From assembly GCA_036493895.1 (NCBI GenBank), contig DASXOZ010000053.1, positions 124,001 through 188,000 on the forward strand: a DNA stretch of 64,000 bases, read 5' to 3'. Shown here in pieces: positions 36,093-44,895 of the stretch (position 1 is its first letter; each line of letters begins with the position of its first letter). This stretch comes from Candidatus Binatia bacterium (GTDB lineage Bacteria; Desulfobacterota; Binatia; UBA1149; CAITLU01). The position numbers and the translations under genes were made by a program. A model generated the notes under the pieces. That model was given only the letters and a program-made list of their open reading frames with translations, did no database searches and was not told the origin of the DNA.

Positions 36093-38119
36093 GTGGGGAT
36101 GACCAACCAGAGTTTTACTGCGTCGCGCCTGCTGCGTGCCGTCATCGGCGACAAGAGGGAGATCGACGAGGGCGTGTTCCACAAGGTCTCGCTGGTGGCG
36201 TTCCTGGCCTGGGTGGGCCTCGGCGCCGACGGTCTGTCGTCGTCGGCCTACGGCCCCGAGGAAGCGTTCAAGGCCCTCGGCGGCGAGACCTACCTCGCGA
36301 TCATGCTCGCGCTCGCGACGACGCTGACGGTCGTCATCATCGCGTACTCGTACAGCCGCATCATCGAGCATTTTCCGCTGGGCGGCGGCGGGTACATCGT
36401 CGCGTCGCGACTTCTCGGAGCCGGCGCGGGCGTGACATCGGGATCGGCGCTCGTGATCGACTACGTTCTGACGATCTCGATCTCGATCGCGGCGGGCGGC
36501 GACGCGATCTTCAGCTTCCTGCACCCGGAGTGGAGCACCAAACTGGTCTTCGGGCTGTTCCCGCTGAAGCTTCCGATTGAATTTCTCGCCATCGTCGTGC
36601 TGATCCTGCTCAACCTGCGCGGGGTCAAGGAGTCGGTGACGGCGCTGGCGCCGATTTTCCTCACCTTCCTCGTCACGCATGCGATCCTGATCGTCGGCGT
36701 CATCCTCAGCCGCTCGGGCGAAATTCCGGTCGTCGTCGCCGGCGTGCGCGAAGGTTTCGCCCACGGGCTGCAGAGTCCGCCGCTCGGGCTCGGCGCAATC
36801 GGAATGATCGCGCTGTTCCTGCGCGCCTACTCGATGGGTGCCGGTACCTACACGGGCATCGAGGCCGTCTCCAACGGCCTTTCGATCATGCGCGAGCCGA
36901 AGGTACAGACCGGCCGCCGCACGATGGCGCTGATGGCCTCTTCGCTGGCGCTCACCGCCGGAGGGCTGATCGTCGCGTACCTTCTCGCGCACGTGATCCC
37001 GGTCGAAGGCAAGACGATGAACGCCGTTCTCGCCGAGAAGTTCAGCGAGGGCATGCACATCGGCGGTTTCTCGTACGGCACCGCGTTCGTGTTCGTCACG
37101 CTCGTCTCCGAGGCTGCGCTGCTCGTCGTCGCCGCGCAGGCCGGCTTCATCGACGGTCCGCGCGTGATGGCCAACATGGCCTCCGACTCGTTCCTCCCGC
37201 ACCGGTTCAGCCAGCTTTCCGACCGCCTGACGATGCACTACGGCGTGCTGCTGATGGGCGGCCTTTCCGCTGCCGCGCTCTGGTACACCAGTGGCGACGT
37301 CACGCACCTGGTCGTCATGTACTCGATCAACGTGTTCGTGACGTTCTCGTTGTCCCAGCTCGCGATGTGCCGCTTCTGGGTGCGCCACCGCAGCGACCAC
37401 GAGTTGTGGAGGCGGCGCCTGGGCGTGCACGTGATCGCGCTGGCGCTTTGCGTGTTCATCCTTTGCGCCACCGTCTACGTGAAGTTCGCCGAAGGCGGCT
37501 GGGTCACGCTGGGGCTTACCGCGGTGCTGATCGCCACCTGCTTCGTGATCCGGCGCCACTACCGCACCGTGCAGGGCGGGCTGAACCGGCTCGACGACAT
37601 CGTCGAGGCGCTGCCGACCACCTGCAACGGCCATACGCCGGAGCTGCAGCCGGAAGCGCCGACCGCAGTGCTGCTGGTCGGCTCCTACGCGGGACTCGGC
37701 ATCCACACGATGCTGTCAATCGAGAGGCTGTTCCCCCGCTATTTCAAGAACTACGTGTTCGTCGCGGTCGGGGTCATCGATTCGGCGTCGTTCACCAACG
37801 TGAGCGCCGTCGACGAAGTGCGCGAGCGCACGCAGACCGAGCTCGCGCGTTACGTCGAGCTGGCCAACCGCCTCGGGCTGGCTGCGCAGATGCGCATGGC
37901 CATCGACACCGAAGTGCTCGGTCCCGCGCTGCGCCTGTGCACCGACGTCCAGCGCGACTACCCGCGCTCGATCTTCTTTGCCGGCAAGCTCGTGTTCGAG
38001 CGGGAGCGCTGGTACCAGCGCCTGCTGCACAACGAGACGGCTTACCAGCTCCAGCGAAGCCTGCAGTTCGCCGGCCTGAACGCGATGGTGCTTCCGACCC
38101 GCGTGCTGGAGACCGCTGC

Positions 38120-38123
<4 letters not shown>
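36093..38123 (+). CDS. kimA: KimA-type potassium uptake permease (APC superfamily)
   Basis: The protein has 676 residues. About 12 membrane helices span residues 30-490, followed by a cytoplasmic alpha/beta domain (about 515-676) similar in position to the Usp-like domain of KimA. Diagnostic stretches include GADGLSSSAYGPEEAF (KimA: SSDALSSVAYGTEE), FPLGGGGYIVAS, ILLNLRGVKES and LSQLAMCRFW. KimA of Bacillus subtilis is a high-affinity K+/H+ symporter controlled by c-di-AMP. An amino-acid substrate cannot be excluded, but the KdpD-derived gene in the operon supports K+. The GTG start is favoured by AAGGAGAG about 9 bp upstream; ATG at 36099 is an alternative. The stop overlaps the next ATG (ATGA). 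Confidence 0.82.
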
Positions 38124-39661
<1,538 letters not shown>

Positions 39662-39700: not shown

Positions 39701-41551
39701 ATGCTCGGACTGCGCCGCAAACTCACGCTCGCCTTCGGCGGCCTGCTCGCGCTGCTTCTCGTGCTCGGCGCGACCAGCATCGCGCTGCTCAACGAATACA
39801 GCTCGACGCTCGAGAGGATCTTCCGCGAGAACTACGACACCGTCCTTTATGCGCAGCACATGAAGGACTCGATCGACGTCCTCGACGGCCTGGCCGAGCG
39901 CTCGCTGTGGAACGAGAACACCGACGCATCGCAGGCACACGACGCGACCGATTCCTTCGAGCGCAACCTTGCCAGCGAGTTCGGCAACATCACGCTGCCG
40001 GGGGAGGCCGAAGCCGCCGACCAGCTCGGCGCCCAGTGGAAAACCTACCGCCAGAACCTCGAACGCCAGCTTGCCAGCGAGGATCCGGTGCCGGCCAGAC
40101 GCGAGGCTTACCGCACGGTGCTGCTTGTCCAGGCCCAGGCCGTCAAGGCGACGGCCCAGCACATCATCGACCTCAACCTTGCCAACATGGTCTCGGTCGA
40201 CGGCCAGGTACGTTCCCAGGCCGAGACGTCGCGCCGCGAGATGCTGGCGATCATGGGGCTGGCCGCACTGTTCGCCGTCGCGCTCACGGTGCTGATCGGA
40301 CGATCCATCCTCGATCCGCTTCGCGCACTGACTGCGTCGGTGCGCGAGATCGAGCGCGGCAATCTCGACCTGGCGGTGGCCGTTCCGTCGGGCGACGAGA
40401 TCGGCGAGCTGGCCGAGGCGTTCAACAACATGACGGCACGCCTGCGCGAGTTCCGCCGTTCCGACCGCGCGCGCCTGGCGCGCACCGAGCGCACGACGCT
40501 GCTGGCGCTCAACAGCTTTCCCGACGCCGTGGCGGTCGTCGGTCCCGACGGTCGCATCGAGATGGCCAACGAGACCGCCGAGCGCGAGTTCCAGCTCGCA
40601 CCCGGAGTGGACCTGGCGCGCTCGGAGAACAAGGCCCTGTGGAACATCGTCGGGCAGACGCTGGCGACCCAGCAGCCGTTCCGTCCGAGGGGCTACGAGT
40701 CGGCGATCGGAATCTTTCGCGAGACCGAGCGCTACTTTCAGCCTCAGGCGGTGCCGATCCTGTCGGAAGACAAGACGCTCGTCGGTGTGACGCTGGTGCT
40801 GAGCGACGTCACGAGCCTGCGCATTCTGGACATGATGAAGAGCGGCCTGTTGTCGGTCGTGTCGCACGAGCTCAAGACTCCGCTCACGTCGATCCGCATG
40901 GCCACGCACCTTCTGCTCGAAGGCAGGGTCGGACCGCTGACGGCACAGCAGGCCGACCTCCTGCAGGCGGCGCGCGAGGACGGCGACCGCCTGCACGGCA
41001 TCATCGACAACCTGCTCGACCTCGGGCGCCTGCAGTCGGGGCGCGGCCTTCTCGACCTGGAGCCGGTACCGGTGCAGAGCCTGGTCGAGGATGCGGTCGC
41101 CGAATTCGCGACCCGTTACCGCAGCCGCGGCGTGCAGCTCGAGGTTGGGTGCGCGCCGGATTCGGGCGCAGCGCTCGTCGATACCGGGCGCGTCCGTCAC
41201 GTCTTCGCGAACCTGCTGGAAAATGCGCTGCGCTTTACGCCCGGCGGCGGCCGCGTGTCGATCACTTCTTCGCGCAGCGGCGAGTTCGTCGAATTTGCCG
41301 TCGCCGACACTGGCAGCGGCATCGCACCCGAGGATCTCCCGCGCATTTTCGACCGCTTCTATCGCGCAGCCCACCAGGCCGCCCACAGCGGCGCGGGGCT
41401 CGGCCTGGCGATCGTCAAGGAGATCGTCGAGGCGCACGGCGGAACGATCTTCGTGCAAAGCGAGCCCGCGCGCGGCACAACGTTCCGCTTCTCGCTGCGG
41501 GCGGCCAGCTCAGCCGACGCCGCCGCGAGCCGGGGCGAAGCCGCATCGTGA
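39701..41551 (+). CDS. KinB-like sensor histidine kinase
   Basis: This 616-residue membrane kinase has helices at about 8-30 and 178-200 that frame a helical periplasmic sensor. HAMP (about 200-255) and a PAS domain (about 262-375) follow. The HisKA domain has LSVVSHELKTPLTSIRMA (His389), and the HATPase domain carries NLLENALRF, DTGSGI and GLGLAIV. The sensor-HAMP-PAS-kinase order and MKSGLLSVVSHELKTPLTS sequence resemble KinB of Pseudomonas, the partner of AlgB. It lies 39 bp behind the AlgB-like gene and 34 bp before the KdpD-derived gene. The signal is unknown; the operon suggests K+ or envelope status. Confidence 0.9.
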   Translation: MLGLRRKLTLAFGGLLALLLVLGATSIALLNEYSSTLERIFRENYDTVLYAQHMKDSIDVLDGLAERSLWNENTDASQAHDATDSFERNLASEFGNITLPGEAEAADQLGAQWKTYRQNLERQLASEDPVPARREAYRTVLLVQAQAVKATAQHIIDLNLANMVSVDGQVRSQAETSRREMLAIMGLAALFAVALTVLIGRSILDPLRALTASVREIERGNLDLAVAVPSGDEIGELAEAFNNMTARLREFRRSDRARLARTERTTLLALNSFPDAVAVVGPDGRIEMANETAEREFQLAPGVDLARSENKALWNIVGQTLATQQPFRPRGYESAIGIFRETERYFQPQAVPILSEDKTLVGVTLVLSDVTSLRILDMMKSGLLSVVSHELKTPLTSIRMATHLLLEGRVGPLTAQQADLLQAAREDGDRLHGIIDNLLDLGRLQSGRGLLDLEPVPVQSLVEDAVAEFATRYRSRGVQLEVGCAPDSGAALVDTGRVRHVFANLLENALRFTPGGGRVSITSSRSGEFVEFAVADTGSGIAPEDLPRIFDRFYRAAHQAAHSGAGLGLAIVKEIVEAHGGTIFVQSEPARGTTFRFSLRAASSADAAASRGEAAS

Positions 41552-41585: not shown

Positions 41586-43217
41586 ATGAGCAGGGAACGA
41601 AGCGATCACTTCCTCGAGCTGATTCGCCGCGCGCACCGCGGCCGCCTCAAGGTCTATCTTGGCTACGGCCCCGGTGTCGGCAAAACCTGGCAGATGCTCG
41701 AGGAAGCGCACCGCCTGCGGCAGCAGGCCGTGGACGTCGTCGTCGGGTACGTCGAGACGCACGGACGCGACGACGTCGCCAGGCTCGCCGCCGGACTCGA
41801 GACGCTTGCGCGGCGCAAGGAAGACTACCGCGGCCTGGTGCTCGAGGAATTCGACGTCGAGGCGGCGCTCGCGAGAAAACCGGAAGTCGTGCTCGTCGAC
41901 GAGCTCGCGCACGCCAACCTTCCCGGAAGCCGCAATGCCAAGCGATACGAAGACGTCCAGGAGCTGCTCGCCGCCGGCATCCACGTGCTGACGACGCTGA
42001 ACGTCCAGCATCTCGAAAGCCTCTACGACACGGTCGAACGACTGGTCGGCATCAAGGTGCGCGAAAGGCTGCCCGACTCGGTGCTCGCCGACGCCGACGA
42101 AGTCGTCAACGTCGATCTTTCGCCGCAGGATCTTCGAAGGCGCGTCGCCGACGGCAAAGTCTATCCGCGCGGCGGCAGTGACGGCGAAACGGCCGGGCTT
42201 TTCGCAGAGACGAGCCTCGAGCGGCTTCGCGAGTTGACGATGCGGGAGATCGCATCCCAGATCGATTTCCGTCGCCGCGCAATCCCGCGCGCCGGCGAAG
42301 GATCCTCTCCCGACCAGATCATGGTCTGCCTCGGCACAGGCGCCGCCGCCAATGCGAGCCTGCTGCGCTTCGCGTCGCGCCTGGCCGGGCGCCTCAACCG
42401 CAACTGGTACGCGGTGCACGTGCAGGGCTCGGTTGACGCCGGCGAGGCGGCGGCGCGAGCGCTCGCCGACACGATGGTGCTGGCCAACGAGCTCGGCGCG
42501 ACCGTCTTCACGTTCCGCGGCGACAGCGTCGTCGATACCATCGTCCGCTTTGCCGGCGAATACCGCGTCGGCCAGATCGTCGTCGGCAGGTCGAGACAAT
42601 TGGCGTGGTGGCAGCACCGGCTCGGTCGCACGACGCTGTGCTCGGATCTGATCGAGCGCTCGGCCGGCTTCACCGTGGTCGTCGTCGACACCGATCGCGA
42701 CGAGCCTGTAGCGATCGAGGGCGACACCGCACCGACACGAAGCACGGCGGAATCGTCGCGACGCCTGTCGCAGCTTCTCGGCGAGAATCATATCGAGATC
42801 TTCGATCGACCGATGGCCACCGAGCAGGTGCTGAGAACCCTGCTCTCACGCATCGGGGCCGGACGCGCGCAGTGGAACGCCGACGAGGCGCTCGCGCGCC
42901 TTCACGAACGCGAAAGCCAGGGCTCGACGTTCCTGAACGAAGGCATCGCGCTTCCCCACGCCCGGCTCGATGGCCTCGCCGCTCCCGTAGCAGCGCTGGC
43001 CGTGACCAGGGCCGGAGTCAGCGACGTCGCGCGCGAGCACCCCATCGAGGTCGTCTTCCTTCTGCTGGCGCCCGCGACGCAGGCCCACGAGCACCTTCAA
43101 TGGATCGGCACGGCCGTACGCGTGTTCCGCAACGCGTCGGTGCGGCGGCGTCTGGCAGCAGCTGCCGGTCCCGGGGACGTGCTCCGGGCGCTCGAGGATG
43201 GAGAGCCGTTCACCTGA
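41586..43217 (+). CDS. N-KdpD - Usp - PTS EIIA(Ntr)-like fusion protein
   Basis: This 543-residue soluble protein has three parts. Residues 20-235 are the KdpD sensor domain, with Walker A GYGPGVGKT (26-34) and the DELAH box (Asp105-Glu106) followed by N-x-P-G-S-R-N-x-K-R. Residues about 245-370 are a Usp-like domain with GRSRQLAWWQHRLGRT near its end. Residues about 395-540 are a PTS EIIA type-2 (EIIA-Ntr-like) domain with the phospho-accepting His458 in GIALPHAR. The membrane and histidine-kinase parts of KdpD are missing. Usp and EIIA(Ntr) are both known to bind KdpD, so the fusion could act as a K+-status integrator for the neighbouring KimA permease or the AlgB-like regulator. Confidence 0.85.
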   Translation: MSRERSDHFLELIRRAHRGRLKVYLGYGPGVGKTWQMLEEAHRLRQQAVDVVVGYVETHGRDDVARLAAGLETLARRKEDYRGLVLEEFDVEAALARKPEVVLVDELAHANLPGSRNAKRYEDVQELLAAGIHVLTTLNVQHLESLYDTVERLVGIKVRERLPDSVLADADEVVNVDLSPQDLRRRVADGKVYPRGGSDGETAGLFAETSLERLRELTMREIASQIDFRRRAIPRAGEGSSPDQIMVCLGTGAAANASLLRFASRLAGRLNRNWYAVHVQGSVDAGEAAARALADTMVLANELGATVFTFRGDSVVDTIVRFAGEYRVGQIVVGRSRQLAWWQHRLGRTTLCSDLIERSAGFTVVVVDTDRDEPVAIEGDTAPTRSTAESSRRLSQLLGENHIEIFDRPMATEQVLRTLLSRIGAGRAQWNADEALARLHERESQGSTFLNEGIALPHARLDGLAAPVAALAVTRAGVSDVAREHPIEVVFLLLAPATQAHEHLQWIGTAVRVFRNASVRRRLAAAAGPGDVLRALEDGEPFT

Positions 43218-43246
43218 CGGCCAGGCCATGCCTGGCGGCCGTTTTT
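43217..43246 (+). terminator. Rho-independent terminator of the KimA operon
   Basis: Directly behind the stop of the KdpD-EIIA fusion gene, a 7 bp stem GCCAGGC-CAT-GCCTGGC (43220-43236) with extra pairing at its base is followed by TTTTT (43242-43246). It separates the kimA operon from the ammonium transporter gene. Confidence 0.8.
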
Positions 43247-43398: not shown

Positions 43399-44895
43399 AT
43401 GAAAGGAAGTTCGCGAGTTCTCTTCGTGGGCGGCAGCGCCTGCGCTCTCCTGCGGCCTCTTGCCGCTGTCACCGTCATCGCGGCCCTTGTCGGCGTCTTC
43501 GCGCCGGCGATCGCCTCGGCGGCCGACGCAGCGACGCGCTCCGACCCGACCATCGAGCAACGGGTGGCCGACCTCGAGGCCTACGTGAACAACGCCGCGC
43601 GCGGAGCCGACGCAACCAATGCGACGGTCGCGTCGAAGGTCTCCGGTTCCGGCCCCGGCCATAACGGCTGGATGATGACGTCGGCGGCACTGGTGCTGTT
43701 CATGACGCTGCCGGGGCTGGCGCTGTTCTACGGCGGCCTCGTGCGCACGAAGAACGTGCTGTCGGTGCTGGCCCAGTGTTTCGGCATTGCCGGCCTCGTG
43801 ACGATCCTTTGGTGGGCCTTCGGCTACAGCATGGTCTTCGACAGGGGCGGCGGCATCATCGGCGGCTTCTCCAAGATGTTCCTGCGAGGCGTGACGAGCG
43901 CACCCAATACCGACTACTCGTACTGGGTCTCCGAGAACGTCTTCGCGATGTACCAGATGATGTTCGCGATCATCACGCCGGCGCTGATCATCGGCGCGAT
44001 CGCCGAGCGCATGAAGTTCTCGGCAATCCTGCTGTTCGTCACGCTTTGGATGCTCGTCGTCTACTTCCCGCTGGCCCACATGGTCTGGGGTGTCACCGGG
44101 ATGATGAACGGCGTCTGGAACGCCGACGCCCCGATCAAGGCCATCGACTTCGCCGGCGGCACTGTCGTGCACATGTCGTCGGGATGGTCGGCGCTGATCC
44201 TGTGCCTGATCCTCGGGCCCCGCATCGGATTCCGCAAGGAGGCATTCGCGCCGCACAGCATGGTGATGTGCATGATCGGCACCGGGATGCTGTGGGTCGG
44301 CTGGTACGGCTTCAATGCAGGAAGCGCGGTGGCTGCCGACGGCGTTGCCGCCAACGCGTTCACGACCACGACGCTGGCAACGGCGGTCGCGTCGTTTACG
44401 TGGGCGATGGCCGAATACTTCGAGCGCGGCAAGCCCAGCGTGCTCGGCTTCTGTTCGGGTGCGGTGGCCGGCCTCGTCGTGATCACGCCGGCCTGCGGCT
44501 TCGTCACGCCCGGCTCGAGCGTCCTCATCGGCATCCTGGCCGGAATCGTTCCGTTCATCGCGTGCACGCGCATCAAGCACATATTCCAGTACGACGACGC
44601 GCTCGACACCTTCGGCGTGCACGCCGTCGGCGGAACTCTCGGCGCCTTCGTCACCGGAATCTTCGCGACTCCCGACGTCAACTCGAACCTCGCGACGAAC
44701 CTGTCGAAGATCGTCGGCAGCACGCTGTGGATGGAGCAGCTCAAGGCGATGGGCATCACGATCGTGATGGCCGTCGTCGGCACGGTGGTGATCGCCAACG
44801 TCGTGCGCGCGCTGGTCGGGCTCAGGCCGGAGACCGAGGTCGAGCGCCAGGGTCTCGACATCAGCGAACACGGCGAAGTGGGGTACAACTTCTGA
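43399..44895 (+). CDS. amt: Ammonium transporter
   Basis: The protein has 498 residues, longer than E. coli AmtB. The extra length is an N-terminal segment with a signal-like helix (18-45) and a short coiled region (TIEQRVADLEAYVNNAA) before the first Amt helix. Eleven membrane helices follow with AALVLFMTLPGLALFYGGLVR, VVHMSSGWSAL (first pore His) and FGVHAVGGTLGAF (second pore His). It conducts ammonium/ammonia across the inner membrane. No glnK lies beside it. Its position right after the K+/EIIA(Ntr) operon is notable, but a terminator separates the two and I find no sigma-54 promoter in front of it. Confidence 0.95.
   Translation: MKGSSRVLFVGGSACALLRPLAAVTVIAALVGVFAPAIASAADAATRSDPTIEQRVADLEAYVNNAARGADATNATVASKVSGSGPGHNGWMMTSAALVLFMTLPGLALFYGGLVRTKNVLSVLAQCFGIAGLVTILWWAFGYSMVFDRGGGIIGGFSKMFLRGVTSAPNTDYSYWVSENVFAMYQMMFAIITPALIIGAIAERMKFSAILLFVTLWMLVVYFPLAHMVWGVTGMMNGVWNADAPIKAIDFAGGTVVHMSSGWSALILCLILGPRIGFRKEAFAPHSMVMCMIGTGMLWVGWYGFNAGSAVAADGVAANAFTTTTLATAVASFTWAMAEYFERGKPSVLGFCSGAVAGLVVITPACGFVTPGSSVLIGILAGIVPFIACTRIKHIFQYDDALDTFGVHAVGGTLGAFVTGIFATPDVNSNLATNLSKIVGSTLWMEQLKAMGITIVMAVVGTVVIANVVRALVGLRPETEVERQGLDISEHGEVGYNF

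What the first reader, a model, noticed from the sequence alone, without database searches (positions are those of the whole stretch)
41586..43217. Fusion of KdpD sensor domain, Usp and EIIA(Ntr) without a histidine kinase
Seen: Walker A and DELAH box of the KdpD N-domain, a Usp-like module, then a PTS EIIA type-2 domain with His458 replacing the membrane and kinase parts of KdpD. Known: in E. coli EIIA(Ntr) and UspC bind KdpD as separate proteins, and kinase-less N-KdpD proteins exist in other bacteria. Inference: here the regulator and its ligand domain have been joined, so phosphorylation of His458 may gate KimA or the AlgB-like regulator.
Basis: partly seen in the sequence, partly recalled or inferred. 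Interest (0 to 1): 0.72.

Follow-up and report, generated by a model that had tools for sequence, protein, structure and literature searches.

The report
Potassium serine-kinase module fused to EIIA(Ntr)
This gene encodes a soluble potassium-control protein that joins the serine-kinase half of the sensor KdpD to a nitrogen-PTS relay domain; the design recurs across about six bacterial phyla next to the Kdp potassium pump, but here the pump genes are missing and a different potassium importer (KimA) sits beside it.

Summary
The 543-aa ORF is KdpD N-domain (E 1e-84), a Usp domain (missed by Pfam, clear by fold) and a PTS_EIIA_2 domain (E 5e-17) with His458; there is no transmembrane or histidine-kinase part. 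It is not a one-off: fused proteins from about six phyla fall, with two EIIA-less members, in one fully supported clade. His458 is invariant and the residues required for E. coli KdpD's recently found serine-kinase activity are kept. In nearly all relatives with readable flanks the gene adjoins kdpABC, whose KdpB keeps the target TGES serine, usually with an NtrC-type regulator and a histidine kinase. So the fusion is best read as a PTS(Ntr)-gated version of the known short serine-kinase KdpD. The window copy is special: kdpABC is absent from the cluster, KimA lies upstream, the genome lacks any c-di-AMP cyclase, and the Usp loop has lost c-di-AMP-type residues while the kinase domain is conserved. 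New variant of a known kind.

The parts
41586..43217 (+). KdpD-N / Usp / EIIA fusion gene, 543 aa
41634..42263 (+). [quoted passage not shown]
   Evidence: Pfam KdpD E 1.4e-84; 2r8r TM 0.95; E. coli W39, D109, E110, R190 equivalents kept
41661..41687 (+). Walker A, residues 26-34 (GYGPGVGKT)
41898..41903 (+). Walker B Asp105-Glu106 (VDELAH)
   Evidence: invariant in fusions; equal to E. coli KdpD D109/E110
42306..42695 (+). Usp domain, residues about 241-370; beta1-alpha1 loop altered (CLGTGAAAN instead of CLSSxGPNS)
   Evidence: 7ji4 TM 0.83; loop comparison
42777..43196 (+). PTS EIIA type-2 / EIIA(Ntr)-like domain, residues 398-537
   Evidence: Pfam PTS_EIIA_2 E 4.8e-17; 1a6j/3urr TM 0.84-0.86
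42957..42959 (+). His458 codon (GxAxPH), predicted phosphoacceptor
   Evidence: invariant in 11 fusions
43220..43236 (+). terminator-like hairpin with T run, 3 nt after the fusion stop; marks the likely operon end
   Evidence: 4 such sites in the region, shuffles give 4.4, so only the position is telling
39701..41551 (+). histidine kinase (HAMP, PAS, HisKA, HATPase), 34 nt upstream; sister to the kinase of a planctomycete RR-HK-fusion-kdpABC cluster
38267..39661 (+). NtrC-family sigma54 response regulator (start uncertain; an ATG overlapping the KimA stop lies at 38120)
36093..38123 (+). KimA-type K+ permease (APC superfamily)
   Evidence: phmmer to KimA 6s3k E 2e-50

Best explanation
The protein is a soluble KdpD-type atypical serine kinase whose activity is set by the nitrogen PTS. 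Steps: (1) the N-domain binds ATP through Walker A and the Trp/Arg pair and transfers phosphate to a serine of a K+ uptake protein, closing it when K+ is sufficient (chemistry shown elsewhere for E. coli KdpD on KdpB Ser162; here only the residues are shown). (2) EI(Ntr) and NPr phosphorylate His458 of the EIIA domain according to PEP/nitrogen status; the phospho and dephospho forms switch the kinase in cis, replacing a diffusible PtsN (inferred). (3) In most relatives the substrate is KdpB of the adjacent kdpABC genes, and the Usp domain may add c-di-AMP or other nucleotide input (inferred). (4) In this genome kdpABC is absent from the cluster and c-di-AMP synthesis is absent (shown), so PTS(Ntr) is the main remaining input I can identify; the substrate is either KimA next door or KdpB encoded elsewhere in the genome (about even). 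The neighbouring NtrC-type pair supplies transcriptional control (inferred).
For: Catalytic residues kept in the fusions. KdpB TGES serine and preceding Glu kept in every KdpB read beside a clade member and in the own genome's KdpB. Fusion adjoins kdpABC in L036-L042, L141 and (kdpC) L140. A short KdpD/Usp protein (D. geothermalis) was shown to be a serine kinase of KdpB (PMC11018627). One clade for fusions plus two EIIA-less proteins, support 100/99. His458 invariant in 11. HPr/NPr in 11 of 11 genomes searched; EI(Ntr), NPr, PtsN in the own genome. No diadenylate cyclase in the own genome nor in 10 of 11 other members of its order, against 116 of 143 genomes in the class sample. The window protein has 24 lone changes at otherwise invariant clade sites over the aligned N-domain plus Usp, only 6 of them in the kinase domain; lost positions include the equivalents of S. 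aureus Ser244 and Asn249. KimA adjoins split KdpD kinases or kdpA in many class members.
Against: No activity is shown for any fused protein. Two clade members lack EIIA yet keep a similar context (L043, L044), so EIIA is dispensable there. The second active-site His of EIIA(Ntr) is not conserved in several fusions. KimA has no TGES motif, and the window kinase domain is little changed, which would fit KdpB in trans better than a new substrate. Most relatives carry a c-di-AMP cyclase, so PTS may be a secondary input there. The relatives' Usp domains match the E. coli-type motif, with only part of the c-di-AMP motif.
Confidence: 0.5

Rival explanations
1. It is a trans-acting input subunit for the neighbouring histidine kinase: the detached N-half of KdpD plus EIIA binds that kinase (or its NtrC-type regulator) and tunes transcription, without serine-kinase output.
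For: HK and RR genes on the same strand with gaps of 34-39 nt; RR-HK-fusion order also in L141, and RR-HK in the clusters of L037, L038, L040-L043; window HK is sister to the L141 HK. In E. coli and Sinorhizobium PtsN acts on KdpD's kinase or GAF part.
Against: All residues needed for phosphotransfer are kept, more than a scaffold needs. L039 has kdpABC-fusion with no RR/HK homologue within the 13 kb read. The RR of the window has a different history from the HK and fusion.
Confidence: 0.25
2. It is a serine kinase acting only on KdpB of the separate kdp locus (contig C17); the KimA neighbourhood is incidental.
For: Own KdpB keeps TGES; kinase domain strongly conserved, 6 lone changes in 235 residues; KimA is widespread in the class without the fusion.
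Against: The C17 locus already has a full-length KdpD with intact N-domain plus its own EIIA gene; kdpABC is absent from the fusion cluster; KimA shares the cluster and strand.
Confidence: 0.15
3. It is a decaying import: after losing its pump partner the gene is drifting, and has no present function.
For: Longest branch of the clade (0.66); no other fusion in the class sample; lower GC3 than neighbours, 0.825 against 0.87-0.90.
Against: Intact 543-codon frame with both active sites conserved and a terminator-like hairpin placed just after it; changes are concentrated in one domain.
Confidence: 0.1

Closest known systems
Short KdpD/Usp atypical serine kinases (e.g. Deinococcus geothermalis KdpD; PMC11018627)
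   Same: KdpD N-domain with all catalytic residues, Usp domain, no membrane or histidine-kinase part, usually just downstream of kdpABC
   Different: Extra C-terminal EIIA domain; in the window no kdpABC in the cluster and no c-di-AMP cyclase in the genome
E. coli-type KdpD sensor kinase
   Same: N-domain and Usp homologous (about 43% identity over 380-390 aa); PtsN is a known partner
   Different: Lacks the four TM helices, GAF, DHp and CA domains
PtsN / EIIA(Ntr)
   Same: Same fold and GxAxPH phosphoacceptor motif
   Different: Only about 25-39% identical over the aligned part, fused, below the TIGR01419 cut-off; second active-site His variable in the family
ptsN2 encoded within rhizobial kdpDE clusters (PMC13104625, PMC9239096)
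   Same: EIIA gene tied to kdp regulation; an unfused equivalent lies between kdpB and kdpD in this very genome
   Different: Separate protein acting on a full-length KdpD

Membership tests
KdpD sensor histidine kinase | KdpD N-domain (PF02702) | tested here: met
   283 bits, cut-off 26.1
KdpD sensor histidine kinase | TM helices, DHp with phospho-His, ATPase domain | tested here: not met
   No such Pfam match; NF007793 matches only 3-389, 343 bits against cut-off 1123
Short KdpD/Usp atypical serine kinase | Walker A, Walker B DE, Trp/Arg adenine pair | tested here: met
   W39, D109, E110, R190 equivalents present
Short KdpD/Usp atypical serine kinase | Usp fold after the N-domain | tested here: met
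   7ji4 TM 0.83 on an AF2 model with pLDDT 89.9
Short KdpD/Usp atypical serine kinase | encoded with kdpABC | tested here: not met
   Absent from the window cluster; kdpA-kdpC-kdpB is on another contig. Met in relatives
Short KdpD/Usp atypical serine kinase | phosphorylates KdpB Ser162 | not testable with these tools
   Activity needs biochemistry; the extra EIIA domain makes this a variant in any case
KdpD_non_kinase (NF038185) | model cut-off 550 bits | tested here: not met
   318 bits
EIIA(Ntr) / PTS_EIIA_2 | domain match over cut-off and fold | tested here: met
   62.7 bits, cut-off 27; TM 0.84-0.86
EIIA(Ntr) / PTS_EIIA_2 | phosphoacceptor His in GxAxPH | tested here: met
   His458, 11 of 11
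EIIA(Ntr) / PTS_EIIA_2 | phosphorylation by NPr | not testable with these tools
   NPr and EI(Ntr) present
PtsN (TIGR01419 equivalog) | score over 138.7 bits | tested here: not met
   50.4 bits
c-di-AMP-binding KdpD Usp domain | (A/G/C)XSXSX2N(Y/F) loop | tested here: not met
   Window loop CLGTGAAAN lacks the Ser244 and Asn249 equivalents; other fusions (CLSSxGPN) keep a part

The most novel reading that the evidence does not exclude
A KdpD-type serine kinase has been moved from its P-type pump to an unrelated K+ importer (KimA) in a lineage without c-di-AMP, its second-messenger input discarded and replaced by direct control through a built-in nitrogen-PTS phosphorelay domain.
Probability: 0.25. 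Interest if true: 0.8.

Novelty: new variant of a known kind. Interest (0 to 1): 0.58.

Why it matters
Short KdpD serine kinases were described only in 2024, with K+ or c-di-AMP as inputs. A clade in which the same kinase carries its own PTS(Ntr) relay domain would put carbon/nitrogen status and K+ uptake in one polypeptide, and bears on the long-known but mechanistically disputed link between PtsN and K+. It gives a compact purified-protein test (NPr to His458 to serine kinase) and, in the window, a candidate for the first KdpD-type kinase acting beyond KdpFABC.

Tried and rejected
sigma54 promoters: 14 sites with up to 2 mismatches against 21.6 expected by chance, so nothing can be said. sigma70 promoter scan: none. 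The first structure model, from 9 sequences, was poor (pLDDT 63.6) and was replaced. Plasmid search: 435 records, only KdpD parts, no fusion over the whole length among the best rows; a second search did not bring up Deinococcus KdpD for comparison. A PII-like gene upstream of L035 was suspected by eye but Pfam gave no match. TGES-like target motif in KimA: none; one Glu-Ser at 180-181 in a motif common in APC permeases (from own knowledge) is not taken as evidence. Literature: no paper found in the library describes this fusion; the library lacks most subscription papers. Interdomain geometry of the model was not used (pTM 0.54).

Full report
Observation. The ORF at 41586-43217 encodes 543 aa. 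Pfam gives KdpD (17-226, E 1.4e-84) and PTS_EIIA_2 (398-537, E 4.8e-17). The Usp part is not called by Pfam, but the full KdpD model extends to residue 389, and an AlphaFold2 model built on 51 sequences (pLDDT 89.9) matches KdpD-N 2r8r, the S. [quoted passage not shown] His458 is in the GxAxPH motif.

Family. A scan of GTDB species genomes brought eight full-length relatives (46-54% identical; L035-L042) and two without EIIA (L043, L044); a sample of the phylum of L035 (392 genomes) added two more fused genes in one genome (L141/L138 and L140). Titles and taxonomy labels name Planctomycetota, Aminicenantes, a deltaproteobacterium filed under Myxococcota, Thermodesulfobacteriota, Bdellovibrionota (Oligoflexus) and Lentisphaerota; the window's own class is not named by the tools. 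A tree of N-domain plus Usp puts the fusions and the two EIIA-less proteins in one clade (100/99); a single clade of fusions alone is not rejected (p-AU 0.27), and one gain with losses is the simplest reading. Sister proteins are short forms from Verrucomicrobiota and a planctomycete. Within the window's class sample (148 genomes) only this genome has the fusion, while 46 others have a short KdpD-Usp, mostly about 390 aa, at the threshold used. Acquisition by horizontal transfer is therefore likely.

Neighbourhood. In L036 to L042 the fusion directly follows kdpC of a kdpA-kdpB-kdpC set; in L037, L038 and L040-L042 an NtrC-type regulator and a histidine kinase precede kdpA. In planctomycete L141 the order is RR-HK-fusion-kdpA-kdpB/C. 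L035 begins 206 bases before the fusion, so its upstream genes are unknown, and no kdp gene follows it in 7 kb. The window has the same RR-HK-fusion core, but the pump genes are missing: KimA (36093-38123) precedes, a terminator-like hairpin follows 3 nt after the fusion stop, and an ammonium transporter comes after. The genome's own pump is on another contig, in the order kdpA-kdpC-kdpB-EIIA-kdpD-kdpE. HK and fusion group with planctomycete genes, whereas the regulator groups with regulators of kdp loci in the window's class: the cluster is a mosaic. KimA occurs in 59 of 143 class genomes and is often beside a split KdpD C-half kinase (for example L147, L157-L160, L163, L167) or kdpA (L156, L162), so KimA and Kdp-type regulators are repeatedly neighbours in this class.

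Chemistry. The 2024 study of E. coli KdpD showed that the N-domain is an atypical serine kinase inhibiting KdpFABC through KdpB Ser162, using Walker A, D109/E110 and W39/R190, and that a short KdpD/Usp protein from Deinococcus geothermalis does the same under c-di-AMP control (PMC11018627). All these residues are present in the window protein (F or Y for W39 in some relatives), and KdpB keeps TGES in every partner read and in the own genome. His458 is invariant in 11 fusions. NPr/HPr is present in all 11 genomes tested, and the window's genome has EI(Ntr) and the rpoN-hpf-ptsN-rapZ-ptsO cluster (gene names other than HPr, EI and EIIA read from the sequences by eye).

What is special here. The genome has no diadenylate cyclase, nor have ten of the eleven other genomes of its order that were sampled, although 116 of 143 class genomes and nine of the ten genomes with clade members do. 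Over N-domain plus Usp the window protein carries 24 lone changes at sites otherwise fixed in its clade (next highest 10); only 6 lie in the kinase domain. Lost positions include the equivalents of S. aureus Ser244 and Asn249, which matter for c-di-AMP binding (PMC8214093). Cautions: the relatives' Usp domains resemble the E. coli-type motif RxxxR-x8-WxAVY (PMC4686210) and carry only part of the c-di-AMP motif, so c-di-AMP binding by relatives is a guess; and the Tyr-to-His change in the WYAVY motif is common in other short KdpDs.

Judgement. Shown: architecture, conserved active sites, clade, kdpABC synteny in relatives and its absence here, presence of PTS(Ntr) genes, absence of a detectable c-di-AMP cyclase. 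Inferred: serine-kinase activity, gating by His458, and the substrate. KimA and KdpB in trans are about equally likely substrates in this genome.

Noticed in passing
L097:7525-15588 (G000:C17, about 165.5-173.6 kb): The genome's separate kdp locus has the unusual order kdpA-kdpC-kdpB, then an unfused EIIA gene, then full-length kdpD and kdpE; like the ptsN2 of rhizobial kdp clusters.
   Followed up: partly
G000:C17:164275-164400 and L097:4735-5724: A short kdpC-like remnant on the minus strand and a DUF4118-GAF protein without kinase domains lie upstream of the kdp locus, perhaps relics of another kdp set.
   Followed up: no
L147-L149, L157-L160, L163, L166, L167; L156, L162: In the window's class KimA genes often adjoin a split KdpD C-terminal half (DUF4118-GAF-kinase) or kdpA, suggesting that KimA is under Kdp-type control there.
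   Followed up: partly
L043:7986-9209 and L044:2275-3429: Two Thermodesulfobacteriota members of the clade lack the EIIA domain but keep the histidine kinase gene upstream; L043 also keeps kdpABC.
   Followed up: partly
window 43399-44895; L037:12064-13284: An Amt ammonium transporter lies downstream of the fusion in the window and, further off, in an Aminicenantes relative; a nitrogen link or chance.
   Followed up: no
L038:10885-12720: A Kup-type K+ transporter lies downstream of the fusion in a Desulfobacteraceae genome, another K+ importer near this kinase.
   Followed up: no
window 38267-39661: The NtrC-type regulator is 64-71% identical to regulators at kdp loci of the same class, whereas the adjacent HK and fusion have planctomycete-type kin: the cluster is mosaic.
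   Followed up: yes
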